A stretch of 64,000 bases of DNA from an uncultured Spirochaetaceae bacterium. Its GTDB lineage: Bacteria > Spirochaetota > Spirochaetia > Sphaerochaetales > Sphaerochaetaceae. The notes under the pieces are model-generated. The model was not told the origin of the DNA. It made no database searches and saw nothing but the letters and a program-made list of their open reading frames with translations. Within the stretch, counting starts at the first letter, position 1. Every line of letters starts with the position of its first letter. The position numbers were made by a program, and so were the translations under genes. Location of the stretch: NCBI GenBank assembly GCA_944389505.1, contig CALXMP010000007.1, forward strand, positions 1 through 64,000. Direction: 5' to 3'. This document shows positions 20,433-21,620 of the stretch, in pieces.

Positions 20433-20516
20433 CCCCAGATGGTGAAATCGGTAGACACAAAGGACTTAAAATCCTTTGACCGCAAGGTCGTACGAGTTCA
20501 AGTCTCGTTCTGGGGA
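20433..20516 (+). tRNA. tRNA-Leu (anticodon UAA)
   Basis: 84 bases: acceptor stem CCCCAGA/TCTGGGG, D-arm, anticodon stem AAGGA/TCCTT around CTTAAAA (anticodon TAA), a variable arm (TTTGACCGCAAGGTCG region) and T-arm with GTTCAAGTC. The discriminator base is A and CCA is not encoded. A GATGATA/TATCATC hairpin (20409-20430) lies just upstream, after the dehydrogenase gene. The tRNA is intact although its 3' half is duplicated 972 bp downstream, as is usual when an element has integrated in a tRNA gene. Confidence 0.93.
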
Positions 20517-20650
20517 TTATCTCATCCAGAAAGCCAAAATAGCTTTCCCTGTGTTCCTTTTCATGCTATATTATAGACAGGTCGGACACCAAGCCGAACA
20601 GGGGCATGTCCCCGCCATAGAGCCAGAGGCTGACCTCTGGCAATTTTTAT
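20465..20650 (+). repeat. Direct repeat copy A: tRNA-Leu 3' half plus structured trailer
   Basis: Runs from the tRNA anticodon loop through the tRNA end and about 130 bases of trailer. Copy B lies at 21437-21620 (offset 972). The tRNA part differs at 2 of 52 bases. The trailer holds a 39-base identical core (20578-20616 against 21550-21588) and more variable flanks. Visible hairpins are GAAAGC/GCTTTC, TCGG/CCGA (20582-20597), GGGG/CCCC (20601-20613) and the terminator at 20622. Confidence 0.85.
20622..20648 (+). terminator. Terminator after tRNA-Leu trailer, upstream of DUF3800 gene
   Basis: GCCAGAGG-CTGA-CCTCTGGC stem-loop followed by AATTTTT. The putative DUF3800 Shine-Dalgarno starts a few bases later, so the gene may depend on read-through from tRNA-Leu. 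Confidence 0.8.
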
Positions 20651-20664
20651 GTAAGGGGCTTGTC

Positions 20665-21273
20665 TTGTCTATACTATCTATCCATATAGATGAAAGCGGC
20701 AATCTAAATCTTTCAAACAGACAGAACCCTACTTATTGTCTTGCTATGGTTTTCCACAATCAGGATGATGATATTTCAACAGAACTCCAATTCCTGAATA
20801 AAAGACTTTCAGATATAAACTGTGATGTGCCTTTCATTCATACATCGCCCCTTATAAGGCAGGATGAACCTTTCGCACATTTATCTGGGTATGAAAGGAA
20901 GAAGATATTCAGAGCATTTGCCAGATTCGTAGAACTACTTCCAATTACTTACACGACTTTCCAAGTAACCAAAACTTTCTATCAGGACAACAAACAAATA
21001 GAAGTAGCCTTTGAACATCAGATAAGGAATTTCATAGAGGAAAGGCTTGAATACTTTCAGGGATTCGAGAAGATTGTTGTGTATTATGACTGCGGTCAGT
21101 CCTTCATAAGCCGTATTCTAAGAGATACATTAGGAAAGATATTCGGTAGCAGAATGGATTTCCGTACAGCTTATCAGAAAGACTACAGACTCCTGCAAGT
21201 TGCTGATTATATCTGCACATTGGAGCAGTCAAAAATCAGATGGGATAATGATAATCCAACTAAGTCAGAGTAG
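20665..21273 (+). CDS. DUF3800 protein, 3' end interrupted by TAG
   Basis: About 202 residues. IHIDESGN at the N-terminus, VVYYDCGQS in the middle and LLQVADYIC near the end are DUF3800 hallmarks. Their spaced acidic residues resemble an RNase H-fold active site, which is an inference. The frame is open back into the tRNA, but the TTG at 20665 (giving MSILSIHIDESG) has AAGGGG six bases upstream and fits family starts. TAG at 21271 is followed in frame by VFFLSRQKFLQNYYRKM and a TGA at 21340. That is the usual DUF3800 C-terminal motif, so the gene is probably nonsense-mutated or needs suppression. Lower G+C than its neighbours and tRNA-linked repeats on both sides point to horizontal arrival. 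Confidence 0.75.
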   Translation: MSILSIHIDESGNLNLSNRQNPTYCLAMVFHNQDDDISTELQFLNKRLSDINCDVPFIHTSPLIRQDEPFAHLSGYERKKIFRAFARFVELLPITYTTFQVTKTFYQDNKQIEVAFEHQIRNFIEERLEYFQGFEKIVVYYDCGQSFISRILRDTLGKIFGSRMDFRTAYQKDYRLLQVADYICTLEQSKIRWDNDNPTKSE

Positions 21274-21403
21274 GTGTTCTTCCTCTCAAGACAGAAGTTC
21301 TTGCAGAACTATTATCGTAAGATGATCAAGAAACACCTCTGAAGTTACTTCACAGCCTGTTTTTGTTACCAAAAAACTATCAATTCCTGATAACAGATAT
21401 TAA

Positions 21404-21419
21404 CAGCTGACATCAGCTG
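21404..21419. repeat. Inverted repeat CAGCTGA-CA-TCAGCTG
   Basis: Perfect 7-bp arms 17 bases before repeat copy B, just inside the right end of the tRNA-Leu element. It may be a recombinase or regulator site; no partner protein is seen. Confidence 0.4.
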
Positions 21420-21436
21420 ATACTCAAAATGAGGCT

Positions 21437-21620
21437 CTTAAGATCCTTTGACCGCAAGATCGTACGAGTTCAAGTCTCGTTCTGGGGATTATCCCATCCA
21501 GAAAGCCAGAATAGCTTTTCCCGGGTCTGCTTTCATGCTATTTTATAGTCAGGTCGGACACCAAGCCGAACAGGGGCATGTCCCCGCCGTGAAGCCGGAG
21601 GAACCTCCGGCAATTTCTTT
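21437..21620 (+). repeat. Direct repeat copy B: tRNA-Leu 3' fragment plus trailer
   Basis: The tRNA fragment covers anticodon loop to discriminator base (21437-21488) and lacks the 5' half, so it is not a tRNA gene. The trailer follows as in copy A. In the terminal stem a base pair has changed on both sides (A-T in copy A, G-C here) and the loop is two bases shorter, which suggests selection for RNA structure in the trailer. Confidence 0.85.
21594..21620. terminator. Terminator hairpin in repeat copy B
   Basis: GCCGGAGG-AA-CCTCCGGC followed by AATTTCTTT on the plus strand. It sits just past the converging M20 peptidase stop and could serve both strands. Confidence 0.65.

What the first reader, a model, noticed from the sequence alone, without database searches (positions are those of the whole stretch)
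20433..21620. 972-bp element bounded by tRNA-Leu 3' half repeats, carrying a lone DUF3800 gene
The intact tRNA-Leu(UAA) at 20433 is followed 972 bp later by a copy running from the anticodon loop to the discriminator base. This is the segment integrases commonly duplicate on insertion into tRNA genes. The enclosed DNA holds only a DUF3800 gene, with no integrase, and the homology continues about 130 bp past the tRNA end, which normal att sites do not do. It could be a satellite mobilised in trans, or a degraded island. The protein has spaced acidic residues (IHIDESG, YYDCG, VADY) as in RNase H-fold nucleases. A nuclease-like protein beside two structured RNA segments is a pairing worth testing.
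Basis: partly seen in the sequence, partly recalled or inferred. Interest (0 to 1): 0.72.

Follow-up and report, generated by a model that had tools for sequence, protein, structure and literature searches.

The report
Integrase-less mini-island with RNA–nuclease pair
A piece of DNA under 1,000 bases long has inserted into the end of a tRNA gene of a gut spirochaete; it carries only a small structured RNA and a gene for an RNase-H-like enzyme, with the landing marks of a family of larger mobile islands but no machinery to move itself.

Summary
The 972-bp unit (20465-21436) lies between an intact tRNA-Leu(UAA) and a displaced tRNA 3' half, and a congener (G019) has the same locus without it. 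The ~130 bp of homology beyond the tRNA is not odd att sequence: it is a trailer plus a ~70-nt sRNA-like element (promoter-like box, two hairpins, terminator) that also sits directly upstream of DUF3800. In the genus (Candidatus Ornithospirochaeta) this RNA-DUF3800 cassette sits at tRNA-Leu, -Met and -Phe genes sharing one anticodon stem. The same three tRNAs host islands of one tyrosine-integrase clade, whose arm sequences match the unit's right end. The window genome lacks that integrase, and its DUF3800 has an in-frame stop, so this copy is probably stranded. Relatives in several phyla have the same layout with Rfam RNA DUF3800-XI; the window RNA matches no Rfam family. DUF3800 models as an RNase HII-like fold with invariant D, E, D, D and is under purifying selection (median dN/dS 0.11). 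Best reading: integrase-less derivative of a tRNA-integrating island carrying a new subtype of DUF3800 RNA-nuclease pair. Trans-mobilisation and the RNA's action are unproven.

The parts
20433..20516 (+). tRNA-Leu(UAA), intact; its 3' half is the attL side of the unit
   Evidence: ARAGORN, Rfam tRNA 58.2 bits
20517..20577 (+). trailer with hairpin GAAAGCCAAAATAGCTTTC and extended -10 box TGCTATATT; resembles the 3' end of the resolvase gene that precedes the RNA in an integrase-bearing island of G033
   Evidence: Sequence; L066/L043 upstream sequence; homology judged by eye, inferred
20578..20649 (+). structured sRNA-like element (type A DUF3800 leader RNA): hairpin 20582-20597, hairpin 20601-20613, terminator hairpin 20622-20641 plus T run
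   Evidence: RNAalifold and pair counts on 26 homologues, 99.3% of cells paired, 4 pairs with two-sided changes; 32 of 48 genus genomes match the model
20665..21342 (+). DUF3800 gene (PF12686), TTG start, AAGGGG at 20653-20658; in-frame TAG at 21271-21273 truncates it; conserved D, E, D, D all lie before the stop
   Evidence: Pfam, frame analysis, conservation
21343..21436 (+). right end of the unit (P' arm type): GTTACCAA at 21365 and ...AGCTGATACTCAAAATGAGG, shared with the integrase-bearing island and with units at tRNA-Met and tRNA-Phe
   Evidence: Alignment of right ends
21437..21488 (+). displaced tRNA-Leu 3' half (attR), 2 differences in 52 nt
21489..21619 (+). second trailer and solo copy of the RNA (core 1 difference in 40, trailer 11 in 61); joined directly to tRNA-Leu in congener G019

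Best explanation
The 972-bp unit is an integrase-less, att-flanked mini-island. It descends from islands whose tyrosine integrase (called IntO here) recombines in the shared anticodon stem AAGGACTNNNAATCCTT of tRNA-Leu(UAA), tRNA-Met(CAU) and tRNA-Phe(GAA). Integration rebuilt the tRNA from the 3' half carried by the element and displaced the old half to the right. The island's integrase and left arm were lost; its right end was kept, with its cargo: promoter, small structured RNA, terminator, RNase HII-like nuclease (DUF3800). Inferred working: most transcripts stop at the terminator and give free RNA, some read through and make the nuclease, and the RNA restrains or equips the nuclease, as the RNA does in ToxIN-type pairs. 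Shown: att anatomy, a congener locus lacking the unit, shared right arms, the integrase clade at the same three tRNAs, RNA structure, fold, purifying selection, transfer between species. Inferred: excision or insertion by IntO, nuclease activity, RNA control. The window copy is probably no longer mobile.
For: Congener G019 has tRNA-Leu-trailer-RNA joined to the same right flank without the 972 bp. The same unit is at tRNA-Leu in L045/L046 and at tRNA-Met in L048/L069 and L076; tRNA-Phe halves lie beside it in L051 and L068. In L043/L066 (G033) the cassette is at the attR end of an 11.4-kb island whose integrase adjoins tRNA-Met. Integrases 56-62% identical to that one adjoin exactly tRNA-Met, -Phe and -Leu(UAA), while relatives at 42% or less adjoin tRNA-Cys or -Val. 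Right ends with GTTACCAA arms are alike across Leu, Met and Phe units and the integrase island, and the same motif lies in the integrases' left arms. Of 27 RNA loci read in the genus, 14 have a full tRNA within ~410 bp upstream on the same strand and 3 more a tRNA half downstream. DUF3800 of G000 and G015 is 95.1% identical while the neighbouring oxidoreductase gene is 81.9%, so the cassette moves between species. Median dN/dS is 0.11. The AF2 model has pLDDT 93.3; best VIA hit RNase HII 1eke, Z 9.3 over 165 residues. D9, E10, D142, D181 are invariant in 57 sequences. The upstream RNA covaries and is replaced by Rfam DUF3800-XI in relatives from other phyla.
Against: No circular form or excision has been seen. 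G019's state could be a loss as well as a pre-insertion site, since it keeps a solo RNA. The unit's left side has no GTTACCAA site, so the integrase may not act on it. Some cassettes (L070, L071, L072, L080) have no tRNA nearby. Outside the genus only 2 of 38 loci have a recombinase match within 3 kb (few queries), so the cassette is not tied to integrases in general. The toxin-antitoxin-like working rests on layout alone.
Confidence: 0.72

Rival explanations
1. A still-active satellite: the mini-island is excised and integrated in trans by IntO from a co-resident island.
For: The same minimal layout recurs at tRNA-Leu and tRNA-Met, with tRNA-Phe halves beside the cassette elsewhere, its right end matches the integrase island, and G000/G015 cassettes were exchanged recently. 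G019 contigs C58 and C31 overlap by exactly 127 nt and part just after the tRNA, which looks like an assembly branch between occupied and empty alleles (inference).
Against: No IntO relative at E<=1e-30 in the window genome; no left arm site; DUF3800 truncated.
Confidence: 0.3
2. The RNA is a cis-acting attenuator of DUF3800 and has no action on the protein.
For: A terminator lies directly upstream of the gene in the members read, which often start with TTG or GTG.
Against: Eight of 27 RNA loci have no DUF3800 within 1.5 kb, yet the RNA still matches the model well; the solo copy in the window keeps its core (1/40) while its trailer drifts (11/61). Rfam types DUF3800-XI as an sRNA gene.
Confidence: 0.3
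3. DUF3800 is itself an RNA-guided recombinase, like IS110 with its bridge RNA, that inserts the unit beside tRNAs.
For: RNase H fold, RNA upstream of the gene, ends next to tRNAs.
Against: The RNA is nearly the same at Leu, Met and Phe sites, so it does not specify the target; a tyrosine integrase clade explains the sites; relatives elsewhere have no tRNA halves.
Confidence: 0.06
4. A local tandem duplication of tRNA-trailer-RNA with no mobile history.
For: Repeats are direct and adjacent.
Against: Same arrangement at other tRNAs, island with integrase at the same core, congener locus without the unit, transfer between species.
Confidence: 0.03

Closest known systems
tRNA-integrated genomic islands (Islander definition, PMC4383910)
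   Same: Intact tRNA gene plus displaced 3' fragment in the same orientation; crossover in the anticodon region, one of the two classes listed there
   Different: 972 bp and no integrase; Islander rejects candidates under 2 kb or without an integrase, so units like this are passed over by design
DUF3800-XI RNA (Rfam RF02975) with its DUF3800 gene
   Same: RNA with promoter-like box, hairpin and terminator directly upstream of a DUF3800 gene; the proteins are homologous (about 33-40% identity)
   Different: Window RNA has two short hairpins before the terminator, another sequence, and no DUF3800 RNA match in Rfam even at E 5; it is tied to tRNA integration sites
Type III toxin-antitoxin pairs (ToxIN; PMC5772629)
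   Same: RNA gene, then a terminator that sets the ratio, then a nuclease gene
   Different: No tandem RNA repeats; RNase HII-like fold instead of ToxN; no toxicity data
RNase HII and PIWI domains
   Same: Fold (Z 9.3 and 8.5) and a D-E...D...D set of invariant residues; DESG resembles the DEAG motif of RNase HII (own knowledge)
   Different: Sequence identity 12-14%; no guide-binding domains; extra invariant H31, H59, K103

Membership tests
tRNA-integrated genomic island (Islander) | intact tRNA gene and displaced 3' fragment, same orientation | tested here: met
tRNA-integrated genomic island (Islander) | integrase inside the island | tested here: not met
   no integrase ORF in 20465-21436; related islands do have one
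tRNA-integrated genomic island (Islander) | locus without the element in a relative | tested here: met
   L013/L176 of G019; direction of change not settled
PF12686 DUF3800 | score above the curated cut-off | tested here: met
   37.6 vs 21 bits
Rfam DUF3800-XI (RF02975) | covariance-model match at gathering score | tested here: not met
   no DUF3800 RNA family up to E 5 in the window; 15 related loci do match
DUF3800-associated RNAs as a class | structured RNA next to a DUF3800 gene, kept across lineages | tested here: met
Type III toxin-antitoxin | RNA, terminator, nuclease gene in that order | tested here: met
   that the protein is a nuclease is inferred from the fold
Type III toxin-antitoxin | tandem repeats in the RNA gene | tested here: not met
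   single unit
Type III toxin-antitoxin | nuclease toxic alone, neutralised by the RNA | not testable with these tools
   needs expression tests
IS110-type bridge-RNA element | RNA segment that varies with and matches the target | tested here: not met
   RNA near-invariant across Leu, Met and Phe sites
RNase HII | fold and DE..D..D residues | tested here: inconclusive
   fold match Z 9.3 and invariant residues, but superposition of the residues was not inspected and no sequence match was found

The most novel reading that the evidence does not exclude
A sub-kilobase satellite whose only gene content is an RNA-controlled RNase HII-like nuclease, moved in trans between tRNA genes by the integrases of full-size islands and kept as an addiction or defence cargo, with solo RNAs left behind as antidote-bearing scars.
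Probability: 0.2. Interest if true: 0.78.

Novelty: new variant of a known kind. Interest (0 to 1): 0.52.

Why it matters
DUF3800-RNA pairs are widespread (Lachnospiraceae, Treponema, Fibrobacter, Eggerthellaceae, Gastranaerophilales) and the function of both partners is unknown. Here the pair is stripped to a unit under 1 kb and recurs at several tRNA genes, with intact relatives, broken copies and solo RNAs in one genus. That makes two questions directly testable: does the RNA control the nuclease, and can a unit of this size be moved by another element's integrase? Island finders that require an integrase and at least 2 kb (Islander, PMC4383910) pass over such units.

Tried and rejected
RNA-guided targeting by the leader RNA: rejected, the RNA does not vary with the tRNA. 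Alternative fold pairing GGU/GGAC with GUCC/GCC: no two-sided change in that helix, whereas the two-hairpin fold has them. Defence or phage family membership: no PADLOC, NCBIfam or PHROGs match for DUF3800 apart from one weak PHROG at E 0.054 for a relative. A solved homologue by sequence: none. General link of DUF3800 to tRNA halves: not seen outside the genus. General link to integrases outside the genus: 2 of 38 loci (few query integrases, low sensitivity). Plasmid and phage collections: one partial phage and one plasmid-record match. A slow regex scan failed on time and was replaced by BLAST. The Weinberg 2017 paper on the DUF3800 RNA families is not in the library. VIA/Foldseek did not list ToxN-type folds among the best rows; absence there proves nothing.

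Full report
What is there. The window lies in a genome grouped with Candidatus Ornithospirochaeta (named congeners). tRNA-Leu(UAA) is at 20433-20516. A 165-nt direct repeat at 90% (20465-20629 and 21437-21601, spacing 972) holds the tRNA 3' half from the anticodon loop, a ~60-bp trailer and a ~70-nt RNA element. Between the copies lie the first RNA, DUF3800 (Pfam 4.7e-9) and ~95 bp of right-end sequence. A probe from the repeat occurs twice in 64 kb and not in 100 shuffles.

Occupied and unoccupied sites. Congener G019 has the same left part (127 identical bp) and the same right flank (M20 peptidase, 96% protein identity) with only tRNA-trailer-RNA between them. So the 972 bp are gained or lost as a unit. 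The oxidoreductase/tRNA-Leu locus is a hotspot: several congeners have no recognisable insert (L179, L182, L184, L188), others integrase genes directly after the tRNA (L177, L186, L187), one the solo RNA. G019 contigs C58 and C31 overlap by exactly 127 nt and end at the point where G019 and the window part, which suggests an assembly branch, hence both alleles in that sample. This is inference.

Same unit elsewhere. RNA-DUF3800 follows tRNA-Leu(UAA) in L045 and L046, and tRNA-Met(CAU) in L048/L069 and L076. tRNA-Phe(GAA) halves lie beside it in L051 and L068, and in G015 the RNA and the start of a DUF3800 gene follow tRNA-Leu(CAG). In the genus 32 of 48 genomes hold the RNA. Of 27 RNA loci read, 14 have a full tRNA within ~410 bp upstream on the same strand and 3 more a tRNA half downstream. 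With roughly 45 tRNA genes in a 2.1-Mb genome, about 1% would be expected by chance (own estimate).

Who moves it. In G033 (L043/L066, Ca. O. stercoripullorum) the cassette is at the attR end of an 11.4-kb island running from tRNA-Met to a tRNA-Met half, with a tyrosine integrase next to the tRNA and a resolvase next to the RNA. Integrases 56-62% identical to it adjoin tRNA-Phe (G012) and tRNA-Leu(UAA) (G015); relatives at 42% or less adjoin other tRNAs where one was found. The three target tRNAs share AAGGACTNNNAATCCTT. The right ends of Leu, Met and Phe units and of the island align, with GTTACCAA sites that recur in the integrases' left arms. The window genome has no such integrase and the unit has no left arm site. 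The trailer resembles the 3' end of the resolvase gene of L066, which suggests an internal deletion of an island. At tRNA-Met the trailer with its terminator recurs downstream in many genomes, so att repeats that reach past the tRNA are usual here.

The RNA. In 26 homologues RNAalifold gives a UCGG/CCGA hairpin, a GGGG/CCCC hairpin and a terminator; 99.3% of cells pair, 4 pairs have two-sided changes, and no slid version comes near. The loops hardly vary and do not change with the target tRNA. Rfam has no match for it, while relatives in other phyla carry DUF3800-XI in the same place (15 loci over the gathering score). A longer second type is in L082-L084. In the window the two RNA cores differ at 1 of 40 positions and the trailers at 11 of 61; the second copy has no DUF3800 of its own, which suggests that the solo RNA is under selection.

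The protein. The AF2 model has mean pLDDT 93.3. The closest solved folds are RNase HII/H2 (Z 9.3 over 165 residues for 1eke) and PIWI (Z 8.5); Foldseek gives RNase H2 3puf at E 2.7e-3, probability 1.00. Z near 9 is moderate, but RNase H2-type and PIWI chains fill the top rows. D9, E10, D142 and D181 are invariant in 57 sequences, as expected for a type 2 RNase H site. PMC10910872 reported an RNase H fold with a catalytic rearrangement for DUF3800 and its link to ncRNAs. Median dN/dS is 0.11. The window copy keeps these residues but stops at 21271.

Transfer. DUF3800 of the window and of G015 differ by dS 0.11 (95.1% identity) while the oxidoreductase gene of the same genomes is 81.9% identical, so the cassette moved between species recently.

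Mechanism. Promoter, RNA, terminator and nuclease gene is the layout of ToxIN, where the terminator sets the ratio of RNA to nuclease (PMC5772629). I take RNA control of the nuclease as the likeliest working, with no direct proof. Solo RNAs after tRNA genes (6 loci) are best read as scars left when the repeats recombine.

Verdict. It is a new variant: a new subtype of a known RNA-protein pair, carried by an integrase-less island under 1 kb.

Noticed in passing
G000:C3:208366-208440 (L003): Third, solo copy of the RNA in the window's genome, with no tRNA found within 1.5 kb and no DUF3800 match in the congener-style search beside it.
   Followed up: partly
L082 5150-5270, L083, L084: A longer RNA type (extra internal hairpin CATTCAGATAACTGGATG) upstream of DUF3800 genes about 40% identical; no Rfam match at the gathering score in L082 and L083.
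   Followed up: partly
L011/L052 (G007:C46), downstream of the broken DUF3800: A second, different DUF3800-like gene (YYFFDEAGSPE...) follows the remnant directly.
   Followed up: no
L070, L072, L077, L080 and L016 flanks: Cassettes without tRNA share another right end (TTCAGCTTAGATAATATCTTA) and/or a GGCAGTGGGGTTTTTTATT-like sequence nearby: perhaps a second kind of attachment site.
   Followed up: no
L272 2017-2164 and 4741-4809; L273 2739-2814 (window genome, reversed orientation): The tRNA-Met trailer with terminator recurs downstream of tRNA-Met and after tRNA-Val(CAC): perhaps footprints of further inserts.
   Followed up: partly
L065 2392-3450 and L043 6444-7541: Proteins with a similar motif (IEFRIYSR / IRFEVRVH), perhaps replication initiators, next to different tyrosine integrases; no Pfam match for the L043 protein.
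   Followed up: no
L097 1593-1715 (-): An azaaromatic (yjdF) riboswitch lies under 1 kb from a DUF3800-XI cassette.
   Followed up: no
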